A stretch of 58,040 nt of DNA, from positions 1-58,040 of the forward strand of contig CALXOW010000017.1 in assembly GCA_944390115.1 (NCBI GenBank). Reading direction: 5' to 3'. The notes beneath the pieces are model-generated. The model searched no databases and was not told where the DNA came from. It worked only from the letters and a program-made list of their open reading frames with translations. Of the stretch, positions 23,676 through 42,351 are shown one piece after another. Every line of letters begins with the position of its first letter. Position 1 is the stretch's first letter. The stretch comes from an uncultured Anaerobiospirillum sp. GTDB lineage: Bacteria > Pseudomonadota > Gammaproteobacteria > Enterobacterales > Succinivibrionaceae. The translations under genes and the position numbers were made by a program.

Positions 23676-24533
23676 ATGCCTAAAGTATCAGTACTTATGC
23701 CCGTCTATAAGACACCTGAAAACTACCTAAGAGAGGCCATCGAAAGCATTCTCAATCAGACCTATACTGACTTTGAGTTTCTGATTTTAGATGACTGTCC
23801 GGAAGAGCGGCGGGAAGATGTGGTGAAGTCATACCAAGACCCACGAATCAAGTACTACCAAAATGAGGTTAATCTAGGTATTTCTGATGCACGTAACCGC
23901 TTACTCGAGCTAGCCCAAGGCGAGTATTTGGCTGTTTTTGATCATGATGACATATCTAAACCAGCCCGCTTAGAACAGCAAGTTGCATTTTTAGATCAGC
24001 ATCCTGACTATGGCGTAGTTAGCTGTCAAAGTTTTAATATAGTTAGCAATACTCCATATAACATTCCATGTACTGATAAAGAAATTAGAGTGGGTTTAAT
24101 GCATGGGTGTCCTATCCAGCACTCTGCCTGTATGATACGTAACTCAGTACTTAAAGAGCACAACATCCGATATGAAGCCCAGTACTCTCCTGCTGAAGAT
24201 TATGCATTATTTTGTCGTCTGATTCCTTACACTAAATTTTATAATTTAGATGAGGAGTTATTTCTTTACCGTGACCATGAAGGGAACACGTCTCATCGCC
24301 AACAAGATCGCATGAGAAATTCCTCTTTAGCGATTTATGCCATGGTACGCACTGCTCATCCAGAGCTATATCAGTTGTACCGTTTTCATTTAACCGAACG
24401 AACCAAATACAAACTCTTTGGCCGCATTAGATTATTCACTGTTTGTCGCACATATAACTGCACCAAAGTTTACTGCTTCAACGAAAAAGTTTTATTACTA
24501 AAACTAGAGCACCATCACGAGCTTAATCTTTAA
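23676..24533 (+). CDS. glycosyltransferase family 2
   Basis: This 285-residue GT-A fold enzyme opens with KVSVLMPVYKTPENYL and has the nucleotide-sugar motifs FLILDDCPE (about 36-43), NLGISDARN (about 66-74) and FDHDDISKPARLEQQ (88-102). HSACMIRNSVL and SPAEDYALFCRL form the acceptor side with its ED. No membrane segments are visible. It probably transfers a sugar during assembly of the rhamnose-containing surface glycan encoded next to it; donor and acceptor are unknown. Its GC content drops sharply along its length compared with nadB, marking the left edge of the acquired island. Confidence 0.88.
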   Translation: MPKVSVLMPVYKTPENYLREAIESILNQTYTDFEFLILDDCPEERREDVVKSYQDPRIKYYQNEVNLGISDARNRLLELAQGEYLAVFDHDDISKPARLEQQVAFLDQHPDYGVVSCQSFNIVSNTPYNIPCTDKEIRVGLMHGCPIQHSACMIRNSVLKEHNIRYEAQYSPAEDYALFCRLIPYTKFYNLDEELFLYRDHEGNTSHRQQDRMRNSSLAIYAMVRTAHPELYQLYRFHLTERTKYKLFGRIRLFTVCRTYNCTKVYCFNEKVLLLKLEHHHELNL

Positions 24534-24582
24534 TTAATTTTAAAGACACTAAGTATCAATACACGTTAAATCGTTTTTTTTT

Positions 24583-24606
24583 AATATTGTTTTTTTTTAC
24601 AATATT
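24583..24606. repeat. AT-rich hairpin before rfbA
   Basis: AATATTGT and ACAATATT flank a run of T in the AT-rich spacer between the GT2 gene and rfbA, next to a second T run at about 24574. It could be a weak terminator for the upstream gene. Confidence 0.4.
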
Positions 24607-24639
24607 TCAAATGATTACACAATAAGAAGCGAGTGTTCT

Positions 24640-25518
24640 ATGAAAGGAATCTTATTGGCTGGCGGTAAGGGAACAAGACTTTACCCTTTAACCCAAACCA
24701 TATCCAAGCAACTGTTGCCTGTTTATGACAAGCCGATGATTTACTATCCTTTATCAACTCTAATGCTTTTTGGCATTAAGGAGATCTTAGTAATTTCGAC
24801 TCCTCATGACTTGCCTCATATCAAGAAGCTGTTAGGCGATGGTTCCAGTTTTGGTCTACACCTAAGCTATGCAGAACAGCCTGAACCTAACGGTATTGCA
24901 GAAGCCTTTAAAATCGGGGCTGATTTCATCGGTCAGGACAATGTTTGCTTAATCTTAGGTGATAACATCTTCTACATGGGCGAACAAATACATCAGTTTG
25001 CAGATGAAGTTGCTGCATATGGTCAGAGCAAAGCTACCATCTTTGCCTACCATGTCTCCAACCCACGACGCTTTGGTGTAGTCGAGTTCGACCAAAATAA
25101 AAACGCTATATCGATCGAAGAAAAGCCGGAACACCCTAAGTCCAACTTTGTATCTGTCGGACTCTACTTCTACCCAAACGATGTAGTGACCAAGGTCAAA
25201 CAGCTGCGACCTTCAGCCCGAGGTGAATATGAGATTACTGATCTTAACAATCTCTATTTGCAAGAGGGTAGGCTGTCAGTCATTCCAATGCACCGAGGCA
25301 ACGCTTGGCTTGATGCCGGAACCCCTGACAGTCTGATGGACTCAAGCATCTTTGTCCAGATCATCGAGCAGCGCCAAGGATTAAAGATCGCTTGTCTGGA
25401 AGAAATTGCCTATCGTCACGGCTTTATCTCCAAAAACACCTTGGCGGAGCAAGTCAGCAAGCTACCTACTGGTGCCTACAAAGACTATCTACTCAATGTA
25501 CTGCAAGGAGATTGCTAA
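24640..25518 (+). CDS. rfbA: glucose-1-phosphate thymidylyltransferase
   Basis: RfbA (RmlA) makes dTDP-glucose from dTTP and glucose-1-phosphate, the first step of dTDP-L-rhamnose synthesis. The 292-residue protein is full length and shows GGKGTRLYPLT (about 8-18), SKQLLPVYDKPMIYYPLSTL, LGDNIFYMGE, EEKPEHPKSNF and NAWLDAGTPDSLMD. Feedback inhibition by dTDP-rhamnose is a property of the family. It leads the order rfbA-rfbC-rfbD-rfbB, which completes the pathway within 3.4 kb. Confidence 0.97.
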   Translation: MKGILLAGGKGTRLYPLTQTISKQLLPVYDKPMIYYPLSTLMLFGIKEILVISTPHDLPHIKKLLGDGSSFGLHLSYAEQPEPNGIAEAFKIGADFIGQDNVCLILGDNIFYMGEQIHQFADEVAAYGQSKATIFAYHVSNPRRFGVVEFDQNKNAISIEEKPEHPKSNFVSVGLYFYPNDVVTKVKQLRPSARGEYEITDLNNLYLQEGRLSVIPMHRGNAWLDAGTPDSLMDSSIFVQIIEQRQGLKIACLEEIAYRHGFISKNTLAEQVSKLPTGAYKDYLLNVLQGDC

Positions 25519-25599
25519 ACAGTCCGTTTTGCAGTAACACTGTTCATAAATATAGTCGCTTGGCCGAGCGGCCTATTCTTGCTCTAACTGGTTTTGTTT

Positions 25600-26154
25600 A
25601 TGAATTTCACACCTACTGAAATTTCTGATGTTATTTTAATTGAACCTAAGGTCTTTGGTGATAATCGCGGCTATTTCTTTGAAAGCTATAACGAGCGCGA
25701 ATTTCACGAACATGGCATCACCACTCATTTTGTTCAAGATAATCAATCACTTTCAAGTTATGGCGTAATCCGAGGCTTACACTGCCAGCTTGGCTCCCAC
25801 GCTCAAGCCAAGTTAGTGCGGGTTTTAGCTGGTGAAGTGCTTGATGTCGCCGTTGATACCCGTCCCAACTCTCCCACCTTTGGGCAACACGTAGCTGTAA
25901 AGCTCTCCTCAGACAACCAAAAGATGCTCTTCATTCCGCGCGGCTTTTTACATGGCTTTGCGGTCTTAAGCGCACAAGCTATTTTCTCTTACAAGTGTGA
26001 TAATTTCTGGTGTCCTGAGGCTGAGTTTGGCATTCGCTATGATGATCCCGAAATTGGAGTAAAGTGGCCAATTCCTGAAGATAAAATAATTACCTCCCCT
26101 AAAGACCGCCAGGCTCACAGCCTGCAAGACCTTCTAAACTTGGAACAAGCTTAA
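25600..26154 (+). CDS. rfbC: dTDP-4-dehydrorhamnose 3,5-epimerase
   Basis: RfbC (RmlC) epimerises C3 and C5 of dTDP-4-keto-6-deoxyglucose. The 184-residue cupin matches family length and has PKVFGDNRGYFFESYNE, FVQDNQSLSSYGVIRGLHCQ with the catalytic His, and RGFLHGFAVLS. Where most family members have a double Tyr before Asn/Ser-Pro (the NYYNP region, whose second Tyr is the proposed catalytic acid), this one reads NFWCPE, with Trp at that position. The ATG at 25600 is preferred to a TTG two codons upstream. It is followed two bases after its stop by rfbD. Confidence 0.95.
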   Translation: MNFTPTEISDVILIEPKVFGDNRGYFFESYNEREFHEHGITTHFVQDNQSLSSYGVIRGLHCQLGSHAQAKLVRVLAGEVLDVAVDTRPNSPTFGQHVAVKLSSDNQKMLFIPRGFLHGFAVLSAQAIFSYKCDNFWCPEAEFGIRYDDPEIGVKWPIPEDKIITSPKDRQAHSLQDLLNLEQA

Positions 26155-26156
26155 GT

Positions 26157-27035
26157 ATGGCTTCAACATTAGCAGATATCGCACAACAGGCACTGCGGCA
26201 CCTCAATCCTAAGCACATCTTAATTACCGGCGCTAAAGGACAATTAGGCACCTGCCTCCGCGCATTATTGCCTGAAGCTCAGGCTATGGGCCATACTGAG
26301 CTTGATATATGCGATCTTGGAGCAGTGCATGATTTTGTCAATGTACATGATATTAAGCTCATTATTAACTGTGCAGCGTACACAAATGTTGAGCAGGCTG
26401 AAGATGATAAGGATGCTTGCTCGCGGCTCAACTGTGAGGGACCACGAAATTTAGCCGCGACCGGCTGTCAACTCATCCATGTCTCCACCGACTACGTATT
26501 TTCAGGAACAAGCTGTAAGCCCTATACCACCGAGGATCATACTGATCCCATTAACGTCTATGGCTTGAGCAAGCTTGCAGGTGAACAAGCTATCCTGGCA
26601 GAAAATCCTTCAGCGATCATTGTGCGCACTTCGTGGCTGTACTCGGCTTTTGGTAAGAACTTTGTGAAGACCATTCATGCTTTAAGTGCTGAACGCAATG
26701 AGCTTAAGGTAGTATGCGATCAAGTGGGCAGCCCCACTTGGGCTCATGATTTAGCCCTTGCCTTAGTCGTAGCAGCTGCCAATTACGACGGCCACGGAGG
26801 CATCTACCACTTCAGCAACGAAGGTGTCTGTTCCTGGTACGACTTGGCCCATGCTGTAGTAAAGTTTAGTGCTCACAAAAATTGTGCTGTACTGCCAGTA
26901 CCATCGTCGGCCTACCCCACCAAGGCAGCACGCCCACATTATTCAGTACTTGATAAGAGCAAGTTTGCCTCTACCTTTAACGTCACTATTCCACATTGGC
27001 AAGAGAGTTTAGAACAGTGTCTCAAGCAATTTTAA
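26157..27035 (+). CDS. rfbD: dTDP-4-dehydrorhamnose reductase
   Basis: RfbD (RmlD) reduces dTDP-4-keto-L-rhamnose to dTDP-L-rhamnose with NAD(P)H. The 292-residue short-chain-dehydrogenase-like protein has the dinucleotide motif ILITGAKGQLG (about 21-31), INCAAYTNVEQAEDD, VSTDYVFSG and the catalytic YGLSKLAGE (Tyr and Lys). An N-terminal extension of some 20 residues precedes the usual start of the fold. It overlaps rfbB by 19 bases. Confidence 0.95.
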   Translation: MASTLADIAQQALRHLNPKHILITGAKGQLGTCLRALLPEAQAMGHTELDICDLGAVHDFVNVHDIKLIINCAAYTNVEQAEDDKDACSRLNCEGPRNLAATGCQLIHVSTDYVFSGTSCKPYTTEDHTDPINVYGLSKLAGEQAILAENPSAIIVRTSWLYSAFGKNFVKTIHALSAERNELKVVCDQVGSPTWAHDLALALVVAAANYDGHGGIYHFSNEGVCSWYDLAHAVVKFSAHKNCAVLPVPSSAYPTKAARPHYSVLDKSKFASTFNVTIPHWQESLEQCLKQF

Positions 27036-28027
27036 TCACTGGGGGCGCGGGCTTTATCGGCTCCAACTTTGTCCCCTACTTCTGCCGTAAGTATCCCCAG
27101 TACTACGTAGTCAACCTGGACAAGCTCACCTATGCAGGCAACCTCGACAATCTTAGAGACTGCATTGGCCTACCAAACTACGAATTTGTCCAAGGTGATA
27201 TCTGTGATGCCGACCTCTTAACCGAGCTCTTCTATCGCTATGACTTTAGAGGCGTAATTCACTTTGCCGCCGAAAGCCACGTTGACAATTCCATTACTGG
27301 CCCAAAAATCTTTGTAACCACCAATGTTGAAGGTACCTTTAACCTCCTGGCAGCAGCCTATGCGCATTGGATGAATGGCCCCCATCAAGTGAAACCTGGC
27401 TATGAGCAGTGCCGTTTTCACCACATTTCTACCGATGAGGTTTACGGCACCTTAGGATCTGAAGGCTTTTTCACCGAAACTACCCCCTACGCTCCTAACT
27501 CACCTTACTCTGCGAGCAAAGCCAGCTCGGACTTCATGGTGCGCGCCTACTACCACACCTACGGATTGAACGTCACGACCTCCAACTGCTCCAACAACTA
27601 TGGCCCAAAACAGCATCGTGAAAAGCTCATTCCTAAGACTATTGAGAATTGCCTAAATGAGCAGCCTATCCCAATTTATGGCAATGGCCTTAATGTGCGG
27701 GACTGGCTCTACGTAGGCGATCACTGCCGCGCTATCGACCAAATCTTTCACCAAGGCCGTGCCGGCGAAACCTACAATGTAGGCGGGCGCAACGAGCAAA
27801 ACAACTTACATTTAGTGCAAACCATCTGCACCATACTCGATAACAAATGCCCACGAGCCAACGGTCTTAGCTACAAAGAGCTCATCACCTACGTTACTGA
27901 TCGCCCCGGCCATGACCTACGTTACGCCATCGATCCAAGTAAGATTGAGCGTGAATTAGGCTGGCGCGCAGAAACACCATTTGAAGCGGGCTTACAGCAA
28001 ACCATAGAATGGTACTGGCAACGCTAA
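27017..28027 (+). CDS. rfbB: dTDP-glucose 4,6-dehydratase
   Basis: RfbB (RmlB) is the NAD-dependent enzyme converting dTDP-glucose to dTDP-4-keto-6-deoxyglucose. The 336-residue protein has AILITGGAGFIGSNF at its start, HFAAESHVDNSI, HHISTDEVYGTLG (with the TDE catalytic triplet), PYSASKASSD (Tyr and Lys) and NCSNNYGPKQ. The first convincing start is GTG at 27017, directly before the Rossmann strand and inside the end of rfbD, suggesting translational coupling. It is the last gene of the rhamnose set. Confidence 0.95.
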   Translation: MSQAILITGGAGFIGSNFVPYFCRKYPQYYVVNLDKLTYAGNLDNLRDCIGLPNYEFVQGDICDADLLTELFYRYDFRGVIHFAAESHVDNSITGPKIFVTTNVEGTFNLLAAAYAHWMNGPHQVKPGYEQCRFHHISTDEVYGTLGSEGFFTETTPYAPNSPYSASKASSDFMVRAYYHTYGLNVTTSNCSNNYGPKQHREKLIPKTIENCLNEQPIPIYGNGLNVRDWLYVGDHCRAIDQIFHQGRAGETYNVGGRNEQNNLHLVQTICTILDNKCPRANGLSYKELITYVTDRPGHDLRYAIDPSKIERELGWRAETPFEAGLQQTIEWYWQR

Positions 28028-28057
28028 CACTCACTCACTCACTAATTACAATTATAT

Positions 28058-28106
28058 GTTGACTATAATTTCATAAAATTATTTTAATTTACAGGTTATA
28101 GTCAAC
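28058..28106. repeat. 11-bp inverted repeat after rfbB
   Basis: GTTGACTATAA (28058-28068) and TTATAGTCAAC (28096-28106) form a perfect inverted repeat with a 27-base AT-rich loop, followed by a T-rich stretch. It may end the rfb transcript or be the footprint of a small element; a CACT tandem repeat lies just upstream at about 28028-28043. Confidence 0.5.
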
Positions 28107-28186
28107 GTATTTTTATATATATATCAAATACAATTAACAAAATTTTACTACAACAAACCTCAGTATAATTACCAAAATCAGTTATT

Positions 28187-29035
28187 ATGAAACCAATCTT
28201 AATTATTGCACATATTTATTACTTAGCACAATGGTCACAAATAAAAGCAACTATAGACAATATGCTAGATTTTGCTCATGACATCTATATCACGTCACCT
28301 CACGATAACGAAGAGTTCAAGCAGAGCGTTTATACATCTTTTCCACAAGCTAAACTCATTAAAGTTGGCAACATTGGTTACGACATATATCCCTTTATAA
28401 GGGTAATTAACCAAATCAATCTATCAAACTATAGCTATATAGTTAAACTTCATACAAAGCGAGATATTGATCACAATGTATTTGCTAGCAACGAATGGCG
28501 CTTAGCACTAATGCAATTTGCTCAATCAAAAAACATTTTTTCCAAGCATATATCGCATCTAGAAAGCCATCAGCAAGCAGGCATGTTATCATGCTACAAA
28601 ACAATCGTCACCTCTAACTACGATCCAGATAAGGCTGCCAGTATATTTTTAGAAAAATTTATAACTCAACATAATTGGCCTATTCTACCATACCGCTTTG
28701 TTGCAGGGACAATGTTTATTGTTCGTGCCAATATTTTACAATCTTTACAAAACTTAAAGTTAACATCAGAAAATTTCGACGAAGCTAACAATCATAAGTC
28801 CGGCTTCGCTCATATGGTCGAGCGATTGTTTGGCTATTTAGTTTACAAAGATGGCTATCAACTGCAAGATATAATAGCACCTAAAATATTACAAAGTTTC
28901 TTCTTCAATTTCCTTCTGCGTTACCCAAATTTTTATCGCAGACATACAGTCGGAAAAGGTCGTCTTGTTATAAAAATAATGGGATTACGTGTTTATATGT
29001 CAAGACGCGGTCGACTTCCTCCTGAGCAAAAATAG
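28187..29035 (+). CDS. RgpF-like rhamnan synthesis protein
   Basis: Proteins of the rhamnan synthesis F family take part in building rhamnose-containing polysaccharides. The 282-residue product has the family's ordered motifs: an opening ILIIAHIYYLAQWSQIK, a YDIYPFIRVI segment where relatives have a GRDxxP motif, YSYIVKLHTKRD, WRLALM, and FVAGTMFIVRANIL followed by GFAHMVERLFGYL. It is shorter than many RgpF proteins, which carry extra domains. Codons and spacers are very AT-rich. Its place right after the dTDP-rhamnose genes supports a role in transferring or modifying rhamnose. Confidence 0.8.
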   Translation: MKPILIIAHIYYLAQWSQIKATIDNMLDFAHDIYITSPHDNEEFKQSVYTSFPQAKLIKVGNIGYDIYPFIRVINQINLSNYSYIVKLHTKRDIDHNVFASNEWRLALMQFAQSKNIFSKHISHLESHQQAGMLSCYKTIVTSNYDPDKAASIFLEKFITQHNWPILPYRFVAGTMFIVRANILQSLQNLKLTSENFDEANNHKSGFAHMVERLFGYLVYKDGYQLQDIIAPKILQSFFFNFLLRYPNFYRRHTVGKGRLVIKIMGLRVYMSRRGRLPPEQK

Positions 29036-30267: not shown

Positions 30268-30648
30268 AGAGACCCCACTTAACAATCCTGTAAGCCCACA
30301 GAGCCAAGTGCGCCAGCACTTACGCTCCGTGATTAGTTTGGCTAATAGTAATGAAAAGAATGTCGCTAAAGGGCTTTGTAGATCTCATTTTTGGGAAAAG
30401 GTGCCGCCCCAAAAGTTCCTTTTGTCCAAAATTGTGAGCTAAATCGTAATTTGCAAACGTGTGCGTTATCACGACACCAAATAAAACTCCCAAAAGAGCC
30501 CACAAATGTGGCATTTATCGAAGGATAGAACGCTCAGCTAGCGCAACTTACGTAAACGCTTACAGAAAGAGCATCTCACAGCAAGCCCCACAGGCTAGTC
30601 AAAAATGCTAACATCGCGCCATGACAAGAATGAAAAGGAATGACCTCT
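30268..30648. other. 381-bp divergent spacer
   Basis: No gene is seen between the binding-protein gene and ispF. GTAAACGCTTAC (30552-30563) is a near-palindrome with a central CG, like operators of LacI/GalR-type regulators; which neighbour it would control is unclear. AAAAGGA at about 30633-30639 is the ribosome-binding site that decides the ispF start. Confidence 0.35.
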
Positions 30649-31140: not shown

Positions 31141-31163
31141 GCGCACAGTAGAGGAGCTTACTC

Positions 31164-32276
31164 ATGAGTCATAAGCCAAACGCATTCAAACGACTCAATC
31201 ACTGGCGCATCCGCAAAACCAGGGAGCTACGCAACTTCATTCAACGTGCTTGGTATCGTGCTGCTTACGAACAAAAACGCGTACGTCTGCCACTAAGCGA
31301 GCTCCCCAAGTGTCACAGCATCGCAATTATGATGCTCGGCACAGGCATTGGCGATGCGATCGTAGTATCCGGCTTTATCAGCGCTATGCGCCAAGCTGGG
31401 CGCAGCGTTCATTGTATTTGCAATCAGAAAACAGCCCAAATTCTCGAAGGCATGATTGAGAATGATGGGCTTCATGTACTGCCCGATAAGCCTTCCCGTC
31501 AGGACGTGCTAAGCCTCCAGCTTAACTTTGATGCCGTGGTACTAATATCTGACCCCGATAAAAACATCGGGCGCGATATGCGCGTACTCACAGCTATCAC
31601 TCACCGCTATGCCATAGGTTTTAACCAGAAAGATCTGCGTTTCTTTGATCTCAGCATCACACGCGACGAGCTTGGTTGCCACTGGATGGAACGGCTTAAG
31701 GATGCTGCCAGCCACTTGGGAGTTACGATCGAAGATTACCGGTACAACATCCACTTTAGTCCTGAGTGTCTAAGTGCGGTCAATCATTTCACCCAAGAGC
31801 TCGGTGCACCAGGTTTTGTCCTGTTCAATCCGATTGCCTCAGATAAATTCCGTTGTTTAGCGCCCGAGGTAGTGCGCAGCACCATTGACTACCTCACACA
31901 CAACAGTTCGCACCGTGTCGTGGTCTTCAATGTCACAGATGCTGCGCTCCGCCATGACTATCCTCAAGTAATTTTCAGCCCGTTTGCTGAGCTTGATCGT
32001 TGCCTTGCGCTCGTAGGCCGCTGTGCATGTCTCATCACCGTCGATACTTCTTTTGTTCATGCCGCGCGCTTCTTTGAAGTTCCTTTGATCGCTATCTACA
32101 ACAACCGTCTATCCTTTGGTCGTTACGATAATAATGTGCAGTGGGGTCCAGGTTACGCTAAGGCGCTCCAAGTATTCTCCTTAGATCATGACCAGACTGA
32201 AACCGGCGACGATCTGCGGCGGCTGCCATTTGAAGTACTCAAACAAGCCTTGGAGCAATATCCGGCTGTACACTAA
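31164..32276 (+). CDS. glycosyltransferase family 9 (heptosyltransferase-like)
   Basis: Family 9 enzymes add heptoses to the LPS inner core at the cytoplasmic face of the membrane. The 370-residue protein has a basic N-terminal extension (about 1-45), then AIMMLGTGIGDAIVVSG (the N-terminal GT-B strand and acceptor loop), GFVLFNPIASDKFRCL at the start of the second domain, and LITVDTSFVHAARFFEVPL, equivalent to the donor-binding motif VDTGxxHxAxxxxxP. Which heptose or other sugar it transfers cannot be told. It overlaps no neighbour and is probably co-transcribed with ispF. The remnant at 19000-19405 resembles its N-terminal part. Confidence 0.85.
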   Translation: MSHKPNAFKRLNHWRIRKTRELRNFIQRAWYRAAYEQKRVRLPLSELPKCHSIAIMMLGTGIGDAIVVSGFISAMRQAGRSVHCICNQKTAQILEGMIENDGLHVLPDKPSRQDVLSLQLNFDAVVLISDPDKNIGRDMRVLTAITHRYAIGFNQKDLRFFDLSITRDELGCHWMERLKDAASHLGVTIEDYRYNIHFSPECLSAVNHFTQELGAPGFVLFNPIASDKFRCLAPEVVRSTIDYLTHNSSHRVVVFNVTDAALRHDYPQVIFSPFAELDRCLALVGRCACLITVDTSFVHAARFFEVPLIAIYNNRLSFGRYDNNVQWGPGYAKALQVFSLDHDQTETGDDLRRLPFEVLKQALEQYPAVH

Positions 32277-32411
32277 AAGCCCTTTCGCAAATTCCGAAAC
32301 TTATGCCCGCAGGCACCAACGCACTCGTTTTGCCCCCAACAAGCGCACACGCGGCGTCAGTACACTTGGTCAAAGTCATATCTACGCCAACAAGCTATAG
32401 TACAGGTAACT

Positions 32412-32463
32412 AAAAAGCCCCACGCTTAGAGCGTCAAATAAGGTTGCGCTCTCAGCGTGGGCC
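32412..32463 (-). terminator. intrinsic terminator of the acyltransferase gene
   Basis: On the minus strand GCCCACGCT...AGCGTGGGGC with inner complementary GAGAGCGC/GCGCTCT-like arms is followed by TTTTTAG. It directly follows the stop of the acyltransferase at 32468 and could also stop the GT9 transcript from the other side. Confidence 0.75.
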
Positions 32464-32467
32464 ATTA

Positions 32468-34381
32468 TTAGTCCTGAGTAACAGCAAGCTGCTCCAAAAG
32501 GTAGGATCCCACAATCGCAGCTCCTGCCAACGATAGGTGGGCCCCGTCGCTAAAGACCAATAACTCCTCATCAGTGATTACGCGGCACAAGCCATCACGG
32601 CACAAAGCTTCGTTGGGATCGATGAAGTGCAGATTGGAGCGCTGCTCACAGATTGAACGCAAGAACTGATTGATTAGGTTAGGTAAAGTAAAGTCAGCTG
32701 CGATTATATGAGGACAATCTAAGGAGCTGAAAATATCCCGTATCAATGGATGACGACTATTTTTGAGCAAGATACAATCTTCGCCTACGCGCGGATCGAC
32801 GATAGGCAAACCAATAAGATAAAAATCTTTACTCTGATAGTGATCTACTAAATCAAGCACTCCAGCTATCACCGCTTGCTTGCGCTGTTCTTGCTCCTGT
32901 GGTTGTGCACCATATTGAACACCTAAGTTGCAGTTCAACAAGTAGTTACGCCAATTGTGACCTATCACTACCTTAGACGCGCTAGTCTGAGCTAAAACCC
33001 GACTATAGTTCTCAAAGTAAATTTGGTACTCACTATCAGGCAATTTCTTAAAAACCGGCCATACATGCACATTATTAAACTGCATTTGGCCGTCAGAGAA
33101 AACACCTACAAACGGTATTTTCTGCTGATTTAAGTAATTAGCATACTGCCGAATATAAGAGTCTCCAATCAGCATTACTTTATCTGTACCAGGCGTCGTA
33201 CCATGATAGATGGAACCAAACTCAGGAATATCTCTGCCACCATAATAGGTCTCATGATAACTCTTGCCTCCCAAATAGTTATCATTAAAGTAGGTTGCGC
33301 CATCATAGCGTACTCCCACTTGCCCCAAAGCCCCTGTTGCCACATAAATGATCATAATTGCCCAATGCCAGCTGCGCTTTGTTTCGATCAAATGATAGGA
33401 CAAGACAGAATAGGCAAGGATGAAACCGCTCAACAAGACAAAATGGTGCAACAATCCTAATTTGCTACAAATACTGATCACCGGCCAATGAATAAGATAC
33501 ATCGAGTAAGAGATCTTACCGATGTACTGCATGACCACATTGGACAACAATGAACGTTCGACCTTAAGACACAGCAGCAGTGCACTAGCAACTACCCCAG
33601 GCAATACCTGCCAGGCTTCCCATCCCTGCATCGGCTCGGCCAATGCCATATTCAAGAAGATCACCAATAAAGCTGTAACTTCAAGAAACAGTGAAAGCGG
33701 AGGATTGAATTTGAGCGGAGGTAGAGTAAAGATGATGCCGCCAATCAAAAGTTCCCAAGCACGGGTGTAGAGCATGAAATAGGACTTATTGTCCGTCAGC
33801 ACGAAAGATGTGCCCAAACTCACGATAAAGAGCGCGGCTATGAAATGTGGCAGGGTTCGCAGCGAACAGAACTTAGCCCAAGCCCAGAGCAACAGTGGAT
33901 AAACTAGGTAAAACTGCCACTCCACAGAGAGCGACCAAGTATGAAGTAAAGACTTATTGACTGCAGCATCAGCAAAATAGCCTTGATCACGTGCAAACCA
34001 GAAGTTGCTGATAAAGAGCAAGGCCCGCATGACTTCGCGGCAGCTCTCTTCATATACATAGGGCGGTTGAATCACGAACCCAACCAGCAAGACCAAGACG
34101 CAGACAGCTAACAAAGCCGGACAGATACGTGAGGCACGCCTTTTCCAGAAGTCCCAAACGCTAAAAGTGCCTGCTTGAAGTCGTCTCACTATGATCGCAG
34201 TCATAAGGAAGCCTGAGATCACAAAGAAGATATCAACTCCTATATAGCCGCCACCAAAGTAGTCAAAACTGGAGGATGTCCCCTTAAGATACGAGAACAT
34301 ATGAAAGAGCAATACCGCTAAAACAGCGACAGCTCTCAGCCCATTAATATCTTGTCGAAAATTGTTAGTGTTCATAGGCAT
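32468..34381 (-). CDS. acyltransferase family 3 protein with C-terminal SGNH domain
   Basis: The 637-residue inner-membrane protein fits the OafA-like class that O-acetylates surface polysaccharides. The N-terminal 360 residues have about ten membrane segments and AT3 landmarks: FRQDINGLRAVAVLAVLLFH with the catalytic-type His, YIGVDIFFVISGFLM, RRASRICPALL and LLHTWSLSVEWQFY. After a linker, the periplasmic SGNH domain has LIGDSYIRQYANYL (nucleophile Ser) and SDGAHLSLAGA (Asp-x-x-His). The gene has no homopolymer tract. The start is either ATG 34381 or ATG 34375. Its paralog lies directly upstream. Confidence 0.9.
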   Translation of the reverse strand: MPMNTNNFRQDINGLRAVAVLAVLLFHMFSYLKGTSSSFDYFGGGYIGVDIFFVISGFLMTAIIVRRLQAGTFSVWDFWKRRASRICPALLAVCVLVLLVGFVIQPPYVYEESCREVMRALLFISNFWFARDQGYFADAAVNKSLLHTWSLSVEWQFYLVYPLLLWAWAKFCSLRTLPHFIAALFIVSLGTSFVLTDNKSYFMLYTRAWELLIGGIIFTLPPLKFNPPLSLFLEVTALLVIFLNMALAEPMQGWEAWQVLPGVVASALLLCLKVERSLLSNVVMQYIGKISYSMYLIHWPVISICSKLGLLHHFVLLSGFILAYSVLSYHLIETKRSWHWAIMIIYVATGALGQVGVRYDGATYFNDNYLGGKSYHETYYGGRDIPEFGSIYHGTTPGTDKVMLIGDSYIRQYANYLNQQKIPFVGVFSDGQMQFNNVHVWPVFKKLPDSEYQIYFENYSRVLAQTSASKVVIGHNWRNYLLNCNLGVQYGAQPQEQEQRKQAVIAGVLDLVDHYQSKDFYLIGLPIVDPRVGEDCILLKNSRHPLIRDIFSSLDCPHIIAADFTLPNLINQFLRSICEQRSNLHFIDPNEALCRDGLCRVITDEELLVFSDGAHLSLAGAAIVGSYLLEQLAVTQD

Positions 34382-34553
34382 GATGCAATATCATTACCGC
34401 AATACCATTAAATTGTTGGCTGATATGTTAAGGGCTAATTATGACAATATTCAATATTTAGAAAATGCTAAGTGATTTTAACCACAAAAGAGATATCATC
34501 TATAACGCCGCATTAATACTGCAGCACAGCTTAACCCAAATATTCAAACAATC

Positions 34554-34588
34554 AAAAAACCTTTCTGCATTAACACAGAAAGGTTTTT
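34554..34588 (-). terminator. intrinsic terminator of the second acyltransferase
   Basis: AAAAAACCTTTCTG (34554-34567) and CAGAAAGGTTTTT (34576-34588) form a 13-bp stem with an 8-base loop and T-rich end on the minus strand. It shows that the two acyltransferase genes are separate transcription units. Confidence 0.88.
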
Positions 34589-34609
34589 AGCTAAAATGAA
34601 AAGCAAAAG

Positions 34610-36547
34610 CTATTGCTTAATTTGATTTAAAATATAATCACCAACAATTTCAGCACCTGATAAAGACATATGGGTACCATCACTAAAAATCAGAAGATTA
34701 TCATCTGTCACTACTCGGCAGTTTTCACCCTGACACAATGGCGTGCTCGGATCGATAAAATACAAGTTAGTCCTCTGCGCGCAGACCGATTTTAAGAAAG
34801 CGTTATATTCATTTGGTTTAGTAAAATCAGGTTTAACAATGGCAGGACATTCTAAAAAGCTAAAAATCGAGCTAATGAACTTATGATTACTATTTTTAAG
34901 AATCAAACAATCTTCACCAGAACGAGGATCGGCAAATGGTTGACCAATTATATAAATATTTTTATCCTGATAATTATCAGCCAAATAAAGAATACCCTGG
35001 GCAATTGCCTTTCTGCGTTCATCCTGATCAGTTGGTTCTGCCGAGTATCCTTCTTTCATGTTTTCATTATCTAAATAGATACTCCAATTATGAGCAAAGA
35101 TCACCGACTGAGCCGCAGTTGTAGCTAAGATTTTTGTATAATTTTTAAAATAAACAGGATATACCTCTGAGGGAAGTTCTTTAAAAATTGGATAGACATG
35201 TATTCCCCTAAACTCCATATGTCCATCTGAAAAAACACCAACAAAAGGAATTCTCTTATTTAAGAAATTAGCATACTGTCTGGCATAAGAGTCACCAAAT
35301 ATTACTAATTGGGGCTCACCTGACATTTCACCTTGATAGATTTCACCTTCCTGAGGAATATTCTTACCGCCATAATACGCATCGTGATATCTCATTGTGC
35401 CGATAGGGTTGTCATTAAAAGGAGTTACGCCTTTTAATTTTGTCTCAACTTGAGCACATACAATTGCTAATATATAGAATAATAGAATTAGCCAATGCCA
35501 CCGACGTTTAGTTTCAATAAGATGATACGACACTGTTGAATAAACAACAATAAAACCAAGTATTGGAATAATGTTATTTAAGAGCCCTAATTTACTGCAA
35601 AATACAATAACTGGCCAATGAATAAGGTACATTGAATATGAAATTTTGCCAGTGTACTGTAATATCACGTTAGACAGTAAAGAGCGTTCAATATTAAGCC
35701 ACAAAAGAACGGCGCTTGCTAAAATACTAGGTAAGATCTGCCATGGTTCCCATCCTTGCATAGGCTTAGCAAGAGCGATATTAACGAAAATTACTACTAA
35801 CACAGTAACTTCAAGTATGCGGCTAAGCACTGGAGTTAACTTCAATGGCGGTAAAGTAAAGATAATACCGCCGATCAAAAGTTCCCAAGCACGGGTGTAG
35901 AGCATGAAATAGGACTTATTGTCCGTGAGTACAAAAGATGCGCCCAAACTCAGGATAAAGAGCGCGGCAATGAAATGCGGCAGTGTCCGCAGAGAACAGA
36001 ACTTAGCCCAAGCCCAAAGCAACAGTGGATAAATCAGGTAAAACTGCCATTCAACTGATAAAGACCACGTATGAAGCAAGCTCTTATTGACTACTGCTTC
36101 AGCAAAATATCCCTCATCACGAGCGAACCAGAAGTTGCTGATAAATAACAGGGAACGCAAGGCCTCGCGGCAACTTTCCAAATAGAGATAAGGTACTTGA
36201 GTAAAGAAGCCAACAAAAAGAACTAAAGCTACAACTACGAGCAGTGCGGGACAAATACGCGCAGCGCGCCGTTTCCAGAAGTCCCAGACACTAAAAGCGT
36301 CCGCCCTAAGACGTCTCATAATGATCGAGGTCATCAGATACCCCGATATCACGAAAAAGATATCAACTCCGATATAACCGCCGCCAAAATAATCGAAGCT
36401 GGAGGTGTTTCCTTTTAGATACGAGAACATATGAAAGAGCAATACCGCTAAAACAGCGACTGCTCTCAGTCCATTAATATCCTTACGGAAATTATGGGGG
36501 GGGGGTATTGTTTTTATACATATTTTCAAAAGACACTTTAGTACCAC
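34610..36547 (-). CDS. second AT3-SGNH acyltransferase with a poly-C tract at its 5' end
   Basis: This paralog has the same architecture: FRKDINGLRAVAVLAVLLFH, YIGVDIFFVISGYLM, LLHTWSLSVEWQFY, then an SGNH domain with VIFGDSYARQYANFL and SDGTHMSLSGA. Codons for its first residues contain ten consecutive C (36496-36505 read as G on the plus strand). With ten C the acyltransferase frame is open only from GTG 36547 or an internal TTG. The natural-looking ATG at 36521 (MYKNN, like MNTNN of the paralog) and an ATG at 36551 are in another frame and would hit TAA just after the tract. With nine or twelve C they would read through. A slippage-switched gene is likely. Confidence 0.88.
   Translation of the reverse strand: MVLKCLLKICIKTIPPPHNFRKDINGLRAVAVLAVLLFHMFSYLKGNTSSFDYFGGGYIGVDIFFVISGYLMTSIIMRRLRADAFSVWDFWKRRAARICPALLVVVALVLFVGFFTQVPYLYLESCREALRSLLFISNFWFARDEGYFAEAVVNKSLLHTWSLSVEWQFYLIYPLLLWAWAKFCSLRTLPHFIAALFILSLGASFVLTDNKSYFMLYTRAWELLIGGIIFTLPPLKLTPVLSRILEVTVLVVIFVNIALAKPMQGWEPWQILPSILASAVLLWLNIERSLLSNVILQYTGKISYSMYLIHWPVIVFCSKLGLLNNIIPILGFIVVYSTVSYHLIETKRRWHWLILLFYILAIVCAQVETKLKGVTPFNDNPIGTMRYHDAYYGGKNIPQEGEIYQGEMSGEPQLVIFGDSYARQYANFLNKRIPFVGVFSDGHMEFRGIHVYPIFKELPSEVYPVYFKNYTKILATTAAQSVIFAHNWSIYLDNENMKEGYSAEPTDQDERRKAIAQGILYLADNYQDKNIYIIGQPFADPRSGEDCLILKNSNHKFISSIFSFLECPAIVKPDFTKPNEYNAFLKSVCAQRTNLYFIDPSTPLCQGENCRVVTDDNLLIFSDGTHMSLSGAEIVGDYILNQIKQ
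36496..36505. repeat. ten-base G/C homopolymer tract
   Basis: A run of ten G on the plus strand (C on the coding strand) sits within the first codons of the acyltransferase. Homopolymeric G/C tracts of this size at the 5' ends of surface-modification genes are known contingency loci in host-associated bacteria. Confidence 0.9.
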
Positions 36548-36551
36548 TCAT

Positions 36552-36990
36552 GATAGCGAACAAGTTCTGACAAGCAGTACTCCAAAAATAATGCAGCAAA
36601 GAGCTGGTTGCACGCATTTTATCACGGTGGCTAGAAGCCAGACTCTTCGAGCTCCGCCATAAGCCCAAATTAGTTAGTTCCGAGCTATACGAGCAGTTAC
36701 CTTGCCTGCCCCTTGTGGACTCTTACTATCTGGGAGCAGATTAGCGTTCTAGTCAATCGATTTTCATCAGTAGCCAGCAAACTTCAAGGCTCTTGCCTAA
36801 CAAGGCACTCCAATCGCATCGGTGTACCGCCCCCACAGGGCGAATTTTTAGCGCGCTCACCACTCGGAAATTACCTCTTCAATGCCCGACAGCAATGCAG
36901 CACTAGCGATTAACTTCTTAGCTCCTAGTCATTAATAATCCATCTTGATGCCACATCACGTGAACTGCAGAGTGGTGCATATATCGCATA
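36552..36990. other. 440-bp spacer, no gene seen
   Basis: Between the start of the second acyltransferase and the left end of the insertion sequence I see no convincing gene, terminator or repeat. It should contain the acyltransferase promoter. Confidence 0.4.
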
Positions 36991-39093
36991 TTTGGCACCA
37001 GAGTTAGCGAATTAAGTTGCTATGTCTGCTGCTGATGCCTGGTTCCAACTGCTCAATGAGCTATAAGTCTCAGGCATCAAGAATTTGTCCCAGGCTGGGC
37101 CCAGCGCCACAAGCAAGTTCAAGTTCGTGTTGTTGATGCCTTCTAGCCTAATCTGGCCGGTGACTGAATCTTCTACAACGACCAAAGCATGGCGTTTCAT
37201 GAAATAGGTAATACGCGTGATGGTTGGCTTTTGCTCGTACCCTGTACCACGTTGGTCAGGCATCACAAATTTACCTTCCTCAACTGCCTTACGAACCTTG
37301 ATCTCAACGAGCTTGTTGGCAAGCAAGGTCATCGCAGTTAGGGTGAGCAGGCCTTCAATGCGATCCGGTCTGTGGATGTTAATGCTGTTGATGCTCATAC
37401 GGCGGTTCTTAAAGAGCGACCACATGGCCTCAATCATTTGATTGCCCTTGTACAGCCCAAGGATATCCGCTGCCGTAAGCTCAGGATCAAGGTTCGTGCA
37501 GACCAGCACATAGCAACGCTCACGCTCAATAGCTGATTGGATCTTGACCTCATCAATCTCAACAGAGCAGCTAACCCTGATCCACCTAATGTCCTTTTTC
37601 GCATCTTGTGATGGGCGCCCACGCCGCTTATACACCGACTTGCAGTCAAACAGCCACGAGCCATCGTTTGCTTCTTCATCGAGGTACGGAGTCACGCTGC
37701 AATACTTATTCTTGGCTTGGAGCTTGAGCACATGTTCTTTGGCGTCGGGACCACACTTAAACTTCTCCTTAAGGCTCTTAAGGAGCGCCTCTTTTTCCTT
37801 GCGCGCTCGGCGGCGAATGGTCGCCTCTTTAGGCTTAGAGAGGTTTGGATTGTCAACCAGTAAGAGCCTAACCTTGTACCCGTACATCACCCCATCGGTT
37901 AGGAATCCAAGGTAGCTATCACCATCGTGATCTTGATAGTCAATTGGCTGTAGCTTATCCCCAAGCTCATAACGGTTCTTGATAAGGTCAGATGCTTGCG
38001 TGTAGCCGTCTGGCACACGCGTTAGGCAGTACATCCCGTTCTTATGCAGCGCATCGAAGCTGGCCTTAGTGCATAGAGCTGAGTCACCCGTGATGTATTG
38101 GAGGGATGAAAAAGTCTCCTTCAAAGCTTTGACCATAGCCCCCGCTATGACTGCGAATGTAGTCTTGTCACTGGCATCTCCATCCTTAACGGTGAAGAGC
38201 AGCGGCAAGCCAAACATGCTGTCAACTACAGCGGCAATGATCAGTTGGCCAAGGTCAGTACGCCTATTCTTAGAGTGACCACGTTTGATAGTTGCCGGAG
38301 TATTGGCGGTAGCATTCTGTTCTTGCTCCGTTTGAGCTGAGGCGAGGTTCTCATCGGCTCCAATTTCATCGGCTACCCCCGCTGGCACAGCTGCGCTCTC
38401 AGTTTCACCAACATAATGGTAAGCGGGAATAGTGGAAGTGTCCAAGACTGCTGACTTGGGAGCGAAGTCATTCTCAAGCATTTTAGGGATGGCATAGGCA
38501 GCAAGCTCACGGAAGAGTTTCTCATGACCGTACTCAAAGATTGCTTCAAGCGCATCCGTGACAAGGTCATGGTTGAAGTCATCGGCGTTAATGTTTGGAG
38601 CCAATCCCAGCATGTCTCTAACGGGGATTTGCTTGATCTGCTCCAGCATGCCCAGAATGCTCTTGTATTGGCCTGATGCCATGCACAATAGAATTGTGCA
38701 GATGACCTCCCCACGATTGATAAAGTGCTCCTTGCTCTTCCCCAAACGCTCGTTAAAAAAGCTGACCAAGGCAGTTTGGCCGATAAATCCGGCCATGATC
38801 ACGGTGTGGTGAATGGACATGGCCACTCTGGACACACCATTGCGCTCAAGGATATGCCGCATCCGACTGAGAGTTTGATCTTGAGTTATCAGGGTGCCGA
38901 GCTGAAGTAAGTGCCGCTTACGCTGGCTTTTTTGGCGGGCCTGATCACGCTTGAAATGATTGCGGGCTTGTTCCTTATTAAGCTGAGTGTATCCCTTACG
39001 CACCATAGTCCATACTGTCCAAACTCCAAGAATGCCCTATGTTACCTGACCCGATCTGAGCTCCCAAGAAAATCGACAGCTCTGGTGCCAAAT
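36991..39093 (-). mobile_element. IS1634-type insertion sequence, complete
   Basis: ATTTGGCACCAGAG (36991-37004) and its exact complement CTCTGGTGCCAAAT (39080-39093) are 14-bp perfect terminal inverted repeats around one transposase gene. Similarity extends one to three bases outward with a mismatch. I could not identify a target-site duplication. The element ends directly against the 5'-truncated transposase at 39093, so it appears to have inserted into, or recombined with, another insertion sequence. Confidence 0.85.
37012..39006 (-). CDS. IS1634-family (IS4-like DDE) transposase
   Basis: The 664-residue protein has a basic N-terminus (about 1-45) and a DDE core. The first Asp is in SAVLDTSTIPAYHYVG, the second in YITGDSALCTKASFDAL, and the Glu in YKGNQMIEAMWSLFKNR, the Y-x-E-x-K-type signature. 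A long insertion between the first two acidic residues contains Ala/Glu/Asn-rich sequence, and a Lys/Arg-rich segment (EATIRRRARKEKEALLKSLK) lies between the second Asp and the Glu. The frame is intact from 39006 to a stop eight bases inside the left inverted repeat, so the element may be active. Confidence 0.9.
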   Translation of the reverse strand: MVRKGYTQLNKEQARNHFKRDQARQKSQRKRHLLQLGTLITQDQTLSRMRHILERNGVSRVAMSIHHTVIMAGFIGQTALVSFFNERLGKSKEHFINRGEVICTILLCMASGQYKSILGMLEQIKQIPVRDMLGLAPNINADDFNHDLVTDALEAIFEYGHEKLFRELAAYAIPKMLENDFAPKSAVLDTSTIPAYHYVGETESAAVPAGVADEIGADENLASAQTEQEQNATANTPATIKRGHSKNRRTDLGQLIIAAVVDSMFGLPLLFTVKDGDASDKTTFAVIAGAMVKALKETFSSLQYITGDSALCTKASFDALHKNGMYCLTRVPDGYTQASDLIKNRYELGDKLQPIDYQDHDGDSYLGFLTDGVMYGYKVRLLLVDNPNLSKPKEATIRRRARKEKEALLKSLKEKFKCGPDAKEHVLKLQAKNKYCSVTPYLDEEANDGSWLFDCKSVYKRRGRPSQDAKKDIRWIRVSCSVEIDEVKIQSAIERERCYVLVCTNLDPELTAADILGLYKGNQMIEAMWSLFKNRRMSINSINIHRPDRIEGLLTLTAMTLLANKLVEIKVRKAVEEGKFVMPDQRGTGYEQKPTITRITYFMKRHALVVVEDSVTGQIRLEGINNTNLNLLVALGPAWDKFLMPETYSSLSSWNQASAADIAT

Positions 39094-39985
39094 GTGCGTT
39101 TTAGTGTCACAAGAAGAGGCTACAGATGGTGCTGCCGTGAATCAAGCTGCGCAAACCATCCCTATCAGGGCATTGTTGGTCAAGAACCCTGGACTTGAGC
39201 CATCTAAAAAGCGATCGCTCACCAAGAAAGCCAAGCGGGAGCAGGAACAACTAAGCAAGGAGCTACAGCACAAGTTCTTGTGTGGTCCCGACGCCCAAGC
39301 AGCTGTGGAAGCAGCTCAAGCTAAAGCTAAGTACTGCACCATTAAGGAAATACGGTATGACATCAAGCTCAAACAGTCACGCCGAGGAAGGCCTTCTAAG
39401 GACAGCTCAAGTAACAAGATCAAGATCGCGTCTGTTGCTGCTGTCGTTGAGGTTAGCATCGATCAAGCTCGATTATCCCAGTTGATTGAGCGAGAGTGCT
39501 TGTACGTCATTATCACTACTGATGTTGAGCGTAACTGGACAATGCGTGAGTTGCTTGAGCTTTACCATGGCAACTCAGTCATTGAGCGCTACTGGCGCAG
39601 CTCAAAGAGCGACAAATTGCTGCCACGCATATCGTTGGAGAATGAGGATCGGATCGAGACCTTGGTTTGGCTAAAACACATCGCCGTCTTAGCGCGTTGT
39701 GTCATTGAGTACAAGTTACGCGAGGTCGCTAAGGAAGATCCGCTGGTCGTACCTCCTCCGCATGAGCCAAACATTCCTGAGACCGAGGTGACGATCGAGC
39801 GCGTTATGAACTACTTGGACAAAAGGCCTGTCTGCTTGCAGTTCAACCAAGAGACAGGAAAAGCTTACTTTACCAATTTAAGCACTTGGGCTAAATCCAT
39901 ATTCCGCGCTCTTGGCCCAACTTGGATAAGGCTACTGTCCCCTAATCTGTACAAAATGGAACACTTCAATATTGTTCATGGGTGA
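39093..39985 (+). pseudogene. 5'-truncated second IS1634-type transposase
   Basis: The frame matches the C-terminal half of the transposase next to it: LVKNPGLEPSKKRSLTKKAK, FLCGPDAQ, RRGRPSK, LIERECLYVIITTDVE, then YHGNSVIERYWRSSKSD with the catalytic Glu, and a C-terminus ending near ALGPTWIRLLSP. Both Asp residues and all N-terminal sequence are missing; the break falls at the right end of the complete element. It is divergent from that element, so it came from a different insertion sequence. An ATG overlaps the join (39092), but a functional product is unlikely. Confidence 0.85.
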
Positions 39986-40048
39986 CTCCGCAGTCCACGA
40001 CATCAAAGCATCTAAAGCGTTTATCACAGATACAACGTTTAACTAATT

Positions 40049-40082
40049 AAAAAGACACGGCAGTTACCTGTCGTGTCTTTTT
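40049..40082. terminator. intrinsic terminator at the end of the spc operon
   Basis: AAAAAGACACG (40049-40059) and CGTGTCTTTTT (40072-40082) form a perfect 11-bp stem with a 12-base loop. It lies 38 bases after the rpmJ stop on the minus strand and would also stop transcription coming from the transposase remnant. Confidence 0.9.
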
Positions 40083-40120
40083 AGGTGGCCCCTTGGGGCC
40101 TCTGCAACATTTGTTAGGGA

Positions 40121-40234
40121 TTAGCCCTGACGTTGCTTGTGCTTTGGATTGTCGCAAATGATGCGGACGACACCGTGGCGACGGACGACCTTGCAGTTGC
40201 GGCAGATCTTCTTAACAGATGCACCTACTTTCAT
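40121..40234 (-). CDS. rpmJ: 50S ribosomal protein L36 (bL36)
   Basis: This 37-residue protein reads [17 protein letters not shown] and ends PKHKQRQG. It has the zinc-ribbon Cys-Cys-Cys-His set (CRNC, then CDNPKH), so it is the zinc-binding form. It follows secY by 57 bases as the last gene of the spc operon. A terminator comes next, and the alpha operon that often continues here (rpsM onward) is absent. Confidence 0.95.
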
Positions 40235-40291
40235 GATTAAACTCCGTGTACTGCAGGCAAAGGCACTGCCTTAGCCTGCTGGCTGAGCCTA

Positions 40292-41638
40292 TTAACGCCC
40301 GTAATTCCTGAGATTGGCCTTGCGCATTAAGTCGCCATATTGCTGGTTCATGCGGTGGCTTTGCAGCTGAGCTACGAAGTCCATGATAACCACGACAATA
40401 ATGAGCAGCGAGGTACCGCCGAAGTAGAACTGAACGTTGAACCAGTTCATTAAAAGCTGTGGCACCAAGCACACTAAAACCATGTAAATCGAACCAGACA
40501 GGGTCAGACGAGTCATCACCTTGTCGATGAAACGAGCCGTCTGCTCGCCTGGACGAATACCAGGAATAAACGCACCACTCTTCTTTAAGTTATCGGCCAT
40601 ATCGCGTGGGCTGAAGACCAGCGCGGTATAGAAGAAGGTGAAGAAGACAATCGCAGCAGCGTACAAGAGCTCATAGAGCGGCTGACCTGGTTGCAAGAAG
40701 AGCGAAATCTCTTGCAGCACATTGGCCACTGGATTCTCGCCCTGACCAAACCAAGATACGATCGTACCTGGGAATAAGATGATCGAGGAAGCGAAAATCG
40801 CTGGAATAACGCCCGCCAGCGTGAGCTTGAGCGGGAGGCTGCTACGTGGTTGCGAATAAATACGGTTGCCCATCTGGCGCTTGGCGTAGTCGATTGGAAT
40901 ACGACGTTGACCACGCTCGACGAACACAACGAAGAATGTAACGAGAACCACTACCACGCCGATGATCAGCAGTGCAATGGTGGAGAGATCGCCTTGGCGC
41001 GCTTGCTCGAAAGTCGAAGCTAAAGCCGAAGGTAAACCTGCCACGATACCGGCGAAAATGATAAGAGAGATACCATTACCAATACCGCGCTCAGTGATCT
41101 GCTCACCTAACCACATCAGGAACATGGTGCCAGTAACCAAGGAGATGGTCGTTACAAAGTAAAAACCAAAGCCAGGGTTATCAACCAAACCAGGCATCAT
41201 ATTCGGGATGCCGGTGGCAATACCCACTGCCTGCAATGCTGCCAGGAAGAGGGTGGCAATACGTGTGTACTGACTGATCTTGCGTCTACCCGACTCACCT
41301 TCTTTGCGAAGCTCAGCTAAGGTAGGGTTAATCACTGCCAATAATTGAATGATAATCGACGCAGAGATGTACGGCATGATGCCCAGCGCCAGCACGGAGG
41401 CACGCTCCAATGCACCGCCACTGAACATGTTGAACATGCCGATGATGGTTCCGCTCTGATCATCAAAGAGACGCTGTAAGACATCAGCATTGACGCCTGG
41501 TACAGGAATGTATGATCCAAGTCTGAACATTACCAGACCGATCAAGACGAAGAGCAGGCGGGAGCGTAATTCGCTGCTGCCACCCTTGGCCTGAGCCTGT
41601 ACCTCGCGCCCCTTCTCTAGGAGCGATTTTCTAGCCAT
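40292..41638 (-). CDS. secY: protein translocase subunit SecY
   Basis: SecY forms the protein-conducting channel of the Sec translocon with SecE and SecG. The 448-residue protein has ten membrane segments, the plug region [20 protein letters not shown], the conserved [17 protein letters not shown] loop, [20 protein letters not shown] and [23 protein letters not shown] 41638 follows GGAGATTTGC and matches the usual MA(K/R) start; an upstream in-frame extension of four codons is less likely. It sits between rplO and rpmJ as in E. coli. Confidence 0.97.
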
Positions 41639-41746
41639 GCAAATCTCCAAAGAACGCGGCTAAGACCCCAAAGCTTTATGCCTTGGTTTCCTAGCGCGCT
41701 CCATCTTACGGCGACCTAACTAGATTGTAGTTGGGCCCGCGTGCGA

Positions 41747-42346: not shown

Positions 42347-42351
42347 TAGTG

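What the first reader, a model, noticed from the sequence alone, without database searches (positions are those of the whole stretch)
36490..36560. Poly-C tract placed to switch a surface acyltransferase on and off
Ten C lie in the first codons. At this length the acyltransferase frame is reachable only from GTG 36547 or a TTG. The natural-looking ATG at 36521, whose MYKNN start parallels MNTNN in the paralog, is out of frame and meets TAA just after the tract. Nine or twelve C would restore it. Homopolymer slippage at surface-modification genes is a known phase-variation mechanism; that this gene uses it is inference.
Basis: partly seen in the sequence, partly recalled or inferred. Interest (0 to 1): 0.8.

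Follow-up and report, generated by a model that had tools for sequence, protein, structure and literature searches.

The report
Poly-C switch before surface-sugar acyltransferase
A run of ten Cs near the start of a surface-sugar-modifying enzyme gene in a gut bacterium puts the likely start codon out of frame with the rest of the gene; it is probably a random on/off switch of a well-known type, although switching itself was not observed.

Summary
Ten C lie on the minus strand at 36505-36496, near the 5' end of an otherwise intact AT3-SGNH acyltransferase gene (34610-36547). ATG 36521 opens a frame that stops after nine codons, right behind the tract; upstream of the tract the body frame can be entered only from GTG 36547 or TTG 36529. 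A relative (G006, an Anaerobiospirillum assembly) has a similar leader and start region, in register from the matching ATG, with an in-frame stop four codons upstream, so ATG 36521 is very probably the real start. The tract is one of 14 C/G runs of 9 or more in this genome; run lengths dip at 8 and rise again at 9-12. Several of these tracts sit in restriction-modification or surface genes whose halves lie in different frames. Two paralogous restriction genes of this genome differ by tract length at a near-identical site, one in register and one not. Best reading: a simple-sequence phase-variable gene, assembled in an out-of-frame state, and one locus of a larger set. No reads or second isolate could be examined, so switching here is inferred. 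It is a new member of a known kind; the papers searched do not describe such a set in this genus.

The parts
36496..36505 (-). Tract of ten C on the coding strand
36519..36521 (-). Probable true start codon ATG; its frame is out of register with the body at this tract length
36492..36494 (-). TAA that ends the ATG 36521 frame directly behind the tract
36545..36547 (-). GTG, furthest upstream start of the body frame at this length; no counterpart in G006
36527..36529 (-). TTG, the other common start of the body frame before the tract
34610..36495 (-). Body of AT3-SGNH acyltransferase copy a
   Evidence: PF01757, PF19040
32468..34381 (-). Tandem AT3-SGNH paralog b, no tract
36522..36720 (-). Leader; weakly but detectably similar to the G006 leader (104 of 189 aligned bases; local score above 300 of 300 shuffles)
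36985..39098 (-). IS1634-family element upstream; left end supported by repeats elsewhere in the genome, right end only by a 19-base inverted repeat
23676..29035 (+). Glycosyltransferase, four rml-type dTDP-sugar genes and RgpF: a nearby polysaccharide cluster, possible source of the acceptor (inference)

Best explanation
The tract is a simple-sequence contingency switch. During replication the C run gains or loses bases by slipped-strand mispairing. When ATG 36521 and the body are in register the cell makes the AT3-SGNH enzyme, which would carry an acyl group (probably acetyl) across the inner membrane onto a surface sugar, possibly the polysaccharide encoded nearby. At other lengths translation from that ATG ends at once; the assembled sequence shows such an OFF length. 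Shown: tract, frames, uninterrupted body, conserved start, and a genome- and genus-wide class of long C/G tracts several of which split genes. Inferred: slippage at this locus, reversibility, substrate and benefit.
For: Frames and tract. Start region: G006's ATG aligns with ATG 36521, 52 of 59 aligned bases match from the ATG on, the only length difference there lies in the tract, and a stop four codons upstream in G006 rules out the GTG-type extension there. Own-genome run spectrum 7:17, 8:4, 9:5, 10:5, 11:2, 12:2; the fall from 7 to 8 predicts 1.2 runs of 9 or more, 14 seen. Same excess in 11 of 11 genus genomes: 147 runs of 9 or more among 419 of 7 or more, about 21 expected. Genes split at the tract: 6 of 8 classifiable long-tract genes against 1 of 8 classifiable 7-base controls, one-sided P 0.02. 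MmeI methylase and target-recognition domains of one gene lie in two frames either side of its tract. Paralogs L014 and L020 share 19 identical bases before the tract, have 10 and 9 G, and are split and in register respectively. Body dN/dS about 0.12 with no stop.
Against: No length variation was seen at this locus. Of the AT3 loci fetched from the genus (L030-L062) only this one has a long C/G tract. 7 of 100 shuffles of the window match or exceed the 8-G count. A Markov model built on window composition expects 9.1 runs of 9 or more in the genome (14 seen), so the bare count is not remarkable; runs of 10 or more are 9 against 2.1 expected. The split test is small, leaves 6 of 14 own tracts and 9 of 17 controls unclassified, includes this locus itself, and gives P 0.06 if L001 is not reclassified by its domains. 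dS is saturated, so dN/dS is rough. The strongest Shine-Dalgarno-like pairing of the candidate starts is at TTG 36529 (-4.8), not ATG 36521 (-1.9).
Confidence: 0.78

Rival explanations
1. Sequencing or assembly error in the homopolymer: the gene is really in register and always expressed.
For: Draft genome in 123 contigs; G005 and G006 are metagenome assemblies; long homopolymers are error-prone (recalled).
Against: The run-length dip at 8 and hump at 9-12, the gene classes at these tracts, and the well-separated 9 versus 10 at L014 and L020 are not what random read error predicts. Even a length miscalled here would leave a ten-base tract of the kind that slips.
Confidence: 0.1
2. Translation starts at GTG 36547 or TTG 36529, so the gene is on at this length and the tract only alters a dispensable N-terminus.
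For: The body frame is open from GTG 36547; Shine-Dalgarno-like pairing is -4.8 at TTG 36529 against -1.9 at ATG 36521.
Against: In G006 that frame is closed four codons upstream of the ATG; the pairing segment before TTG 36529 (GAGUGG) lies about 15-20 bases upstream, far for a ribosome site (spacing rule recalled); GTG 36547 pairs at -0.3 only. All AT3 starts here are weak, so this test does not decide.
Confidence: 0.06
3. A decaying copy: the tract change is one frameshift on the way to a pseudogene, since an intact paralog stands beside it.
For: Intact paralog b is closer by body sequence to the single G006 gene of this slot (86% nucleotide identity) than copy a is (69%); an IS element lies upstream.
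Against: No other lesion in 645 codons and dN/dS about 0.12 (dS saturated); the lesion falls in a tract of the kind found in other genes of the genome.
Confidence: 0.04
4. Transcriptional or ribosomal slippage on the C run gives a steady low level of enzyme from the out-of-register DNA, without DNA switching.
For: Long homopolymers are known slippage sites in transcription and translation (recalled).
Against: Tracts occur in C and in G orientation on coding strands and at different lengths in paralogs, which suits DNA-level variation. Expression was not tested.
Confidence: 0.02

Closest known systems
Haemophilus influenzae oafA, phase-variable AT3 O-acetyltransferase of lipooligosaccharide (PMC9558356, passages seen)
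   Same: AT3-type surface acyltransferase whose expression switches through a repeat
   Different: There the repeat is of tetranucleotides (title of a reference seen) and switching is shown; here a C run, switching inferred
Salmonella oafB, AT3-SGNH O-antigen acetyltransferase with phase variation (PMC9558356 and PMC9833829, passages seen)
   Same: AT3 plus SGNH fusion; Arg and His eleven residues apart as OafB Arg14/His25; SGNH Asp-x-x-His spacing; switchable expression
   Different: Salmonella control is epigenetic, DNA-methylation dependent, upstream of the gene; here a coding tract
Homopolymer contingency loci of Neisseria meningitidis and Campylobacter jejuni (PMC5084427, PMC4889913, PMC5808241; abstract starts seen in listings)
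   Same: Many repeat tracts per genome, in restriction-modification and surface genes, with frame switching
   Different: There validated by deep sequencing or phenotype; here seen only in assemblies of Anaerobiospirillum

Membership tests
AT3-SGNH surface acyltransferase | AT3 domain (PF01757) fused to SGNH domain (PF19040), both above curated cut-off | tested here: met
   93.1 against 31 bits and 73.3 against 27 bits
AT3-SGNH surface acyltransferase | Helix-1 Arg/His pair, RxxR motif, SGNH Ser and Asp-x-x-His | tested here: met
   By eye in the protein: R28 and H39, RAAR, GDS, DGTH; compared with OafB residues named in passages of PMC9833829
AT3-SGNH surface acyltransferase | Acylates a surface sugar | not testable with these tools
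   Needs glycan chemistry; only a nearby rml/glycosyltransferase cluster was seen
Simple-sequence contingency (phase-variable) locus | Long tract in the coding 5' part such that start frame and body frame agree only at some lengths | tested here: met
Simple-sequence contingency (phase-variable) locus | Tract length varies between cells or isolates | not testable with these tools
   No reads; one genome per species is held. Length differences were seen only between paralogs and species at another gene family
Simple-sequence contingency (phase-variable) locus | Switching is reversible and changes a phenotype | not testable with these tools
   Needs culture or reporter
Simple-sequence contingency (phase-variable) locus | Tract shared by relatives of the gene (supporting feature, not strictly defining; recalled) | tested here: not met
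   Among AT3 loci L030-L062 no other C/G run of 8 or more; G005 has G7 further in, G006 has A10 just before its ATG

The most novel reading that the evidence does not exclude
Anaerobiospirillum runs a C/G-tract phasome in which restriction-modification enzymes of several kinds (MmeI type, type III methylases, Mrr-ResIII enzymes, a type IIG) and surface-modifying enzymes such as this acyltransferase are switched independently, so that one gut population mixes phage-defence and surface-glycan states. The habit may extend through the family, and an insertion element that lands beside C runs may further edit these loci.
Probability: 0.6. Interest if true: 0.65.

Novelty: new member of a known kind. 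Interest (0 to 1): 0.52.

Why it matters
If true, a group of gut bacteria for which the searched library gave no report of phase variation has a contingency system like those of host-adapted pathogens. It would predict mixed surface and restriction states in one population, with effects on phage susceptibility, and it can be tested at once by counting tract lengths in existing metagenome reads.

Tried and rejected
IS involvement at the tract: the IS1634-type element begins at about 36985, some 480 bases from the tract, and part of the leader in between is similar to G006, so the element did not make the tract.

Prophage-borne acyltransferase: a scan of viral contigs gave 13 relatives at 25-38% identity, so such genes do occur on phage-like contigs, but none is close, and this gene lies between secY/ribosomal genes and a region that are both syntenic in G006.

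Shine-Dalgarno strength to choose the start: not decisive. The eight AT3 starts tested pair at -0.1 to -4.8 against -3.9 to -12.2 for 12 starts in the ribosomal operon; the best of the four candidates here is TTG 36529.

Promoter scan of 36450-37050: one hit, on the other strand, at the shuffle rate; two terminator-like sites (0.5 expected), one of them on the minus strand at 36471-36458 inside the gene, not followed up. Solved-structure search: 0 matches at E 0.001. NCBIfam: only a SucT model, 59 bits against a cut-off of 1275. No structure was predicted.

Bare count of long runs as evidence: dropped in favour of the shape of the distribution.

Rows set aside: by the rule, 6 of 14 own long tracts, 14 of 27 other-genus long tracts and 9 of 17 control runs fell in neither class and are not in the tests. 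L001 was moved by hand from 'in register' to 'split' because its MmeI domains lie in different frames. Of 147 genus tracts 41 were examined: 14 own and 27 others, two or three per genome, as the tool returned loci. Pfam was run on pieces of 24 of these 41 besides this locus; 18 of the 24 had a match.

Notebook correction: entry 5 says 18 and 14 identical bases flank the L014/L020 tracts; the alignment shows 19 before and 5 after.

Full report
What is there. The window is contig C17 of a 3.64 Mb draft genome in 123 contigs. The closest named relatives of the gene are in uncultured Anaerobiospirillum assemblies, two of which coincide in contig coordinates with G006 and G005 of the genus search. 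On the minus strand a 645-codon open frame, 36547-34610, encodes an AT3 acyltransferase domain fused to an SGNH domain. Ten C, 36505-36496, lie among its first codons. A tandem paralog, 34381-32468, is 67% identical and carries no tract.

Frames. ATG 36521 opens nine codons and stops at TAA 36494, directly behind the tract. The body frame reaches no further upstream than GTG 36547, because TGA precedes it, and has one other ATG/GTG/TTG before the tract, TTG 36529. Behind the tract the next are TTG 36442 and ATG 36430, both past the conserved Arg of the helix-1 Arg/His pair.

Which start is real. The G006 gene (L034; the same sequence around the start in public contig L060) has an ATG that aligns with ATG 36521, and 52 of 59 aligned bases match from there on; the only length difference in that stretch lies in the tract. 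In G006 the frame is closed by a stop four codons upstream of the ATG. The leader is weakly similar: 104 of 189 aligned bases, with a local score that none of 300 shuffles reaches; the paralog's leader shows no such similarity. The GTG-frame extension thus has no counterpart in G006. Shine-Dalgarno strength does not decide: every AT3 start is weak, and of the candidates here TTG 36529 pairs best.

Is the tract one of a class? This genome has 17 C/G runs of exactly 7, 35 of at least 7 and 14 of at least 9, hence 4 of exactly 8. The 14 have lengths 9 (five), 10 (five), 11 (two) and 12 (two). The fall from 7 to 8 would predict 1.2 runs of at least 9. Against a first-order Markov model built on window composition, runs of 7 or more are strongly depleted (35 seen, 180 expected), runs of 9 or more are not (14 seen, 9.1 expected) and runs of 10 or more are in excess (9 seen, 2.1 expected). 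All 11 genus genomes have more runs of 9 or more than their runs of 7 or more predict: 147 of 419 in total, about 21 expected, each genome at P below 0.001. In the family 48 of 57 genomes have at least one run of 9 or more; shorter runs were not counted there, so the shape of the distribution is untested outside the genus.

What the tracts sit in. Of the 147 genus tracts 41 were examined, and pieces next to 24 of these, besides this locus, were scanned with Pfam; 18 of 24 matched. In this genome: an MmeI-type restriction enzyme (L001), an N6/N4 methylase (L003; PADLOC MTase_III), three Mrr-ResIII genes (L007, L014, L020; L020 matches PADLOC models of type IIG and type I enzymes) and a hexapeptide acetyltransferase (L013). 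In relatives: N6/N4 methylases (L132, L143), Mrr-ResIII genes (L136, L138), an Eco57I-type enzyme (L127), a polysaccharide pyruvyl transferase (L129), an FkbM methyltransferase (L134), an autotransporter (L135), a HAD-UbiA protein (L141), a methyltransferase with regulatory domain (L145), a chemotaxis receptor (L147) and an amine-oxidase-like gene (L123). No Pfam match: L006, L012, L024, L028, L125, L149. Ten of the 18 matched are restriction-modification genes. A number of tracts lie outside any clear gene (for example L011, L122, L124).

Frames at the other tracts. By a fixed rule: own long tracts split 5, in register 3, neither 6; other genus tracts split 7, in register 6, neither 14; control 7-base runs split 1, in register 7, neither 9. 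L001 counts as split once its MmeI domains are considered. With that change the own-genome contrast is 6 of 8 against 1 of 8 (one-sided P 0.02), without it 5 of 8 (P 0.06), and with the other genomes 13 of 21 against 1 of 8 (P 0.02). This locus is one of the split genes, so the test is partly circular for it.

Nearest to a direct view of slippage. L014 and L020 are paralogous Mrr-ResIII genes of this genome. They share 19 identical bases before the tract and 5 after it, 89% mean identity over 141 columns, and have 10 and 9 G; the first is split at the tract, the second is in register. This shows a length difference at a shared tract between paralogs, not between cells.

Is the acyltransferase maintained? 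The body has no stop. dN/dS is about 0.12 against the paralog and against the G006 gene, with dS near 2 and so saturated. The slot is variable: flanking stretches are 97% and 91% identical to G006, paralog b 87% and copy a 70%, and the 7.9 kb G006 stretch shows one AT3 gene there. By body, paralog b is the closer relative of the G006 gene, yet copy a has the G006-like leader; a divergent body may have been exchanged in behind an old leader (inference). Polysaccharide genes, rml type among them, lie about 5.6 to 10.9 kb away. OafB acetylates O-antigen rhamnose (PMC9833829, passages); that this enzyme does so is inference.

Literature. Phase variation of AT3 genes is known in H. influenzae oafA and Salmonella oafB (PMC9558356, passages). 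Anaerobiospirillum with phase variation: 0 papers. Anaerobiospirillum with restriction-modification: 4 papers that mention the genus once each, not opened. Succinivibrionaceae with phase-variable: 1 review on fish pathogens, not opened. These searches cover an open-licence library only. The family name is recalled, not taken from a call.

Verdict. Observation confirmed; interpretation likely, not directly shown. New member of a known kind; the wider set of tract loci in the genus is the more interesting part.

Noticed in passing
L181-L186 (contigs C70, C51, C85, C81, C83, C109 of G000): A 76-77 base repeat at contig ends, probably the end of a mobile element, is followed 5 bases later by a C run in 4 of 6 copies (6, 12, 7 and 11 C). 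Three of the four were met through C-run searches, so there is ascertainment; in C81 the run is the tract of an Mrr-ResIII-like gene.
   Followed up: partly
L014:1501-1510 and L020:1501-1509: Two paralogous Mrr-ResIII restriction genes of one genome with 10 and 9 G at the same site, one split and one in register.
   Followed up: partly
L034:1484-1493: The G006 AT3 gene has ten A directly before its ATG, another homopolymer near the same place.
   Followed up: no
window 29133-42803: AT3 slot between the ribosomal operon/secY and the ispF region: flanks 91-97% identical to G006 while the AT3 genes are 70-87% identical.
   Followed up: partly
L001:485-3009: MmeI-type restriction gene with methylase and target-recognition domains in different frames either side of ten G.
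   Followed up: partly
G000: 11 of 14 long C runs are preceded by A (P 0.0007 against one third).
   Followed up: no
window 36471-36458, minus strand: A weak terminator-like stem just behind the tract inside the gene, which might act when the gene is not translated (about 0.5 such sites expected in the region).
   Followed up: no
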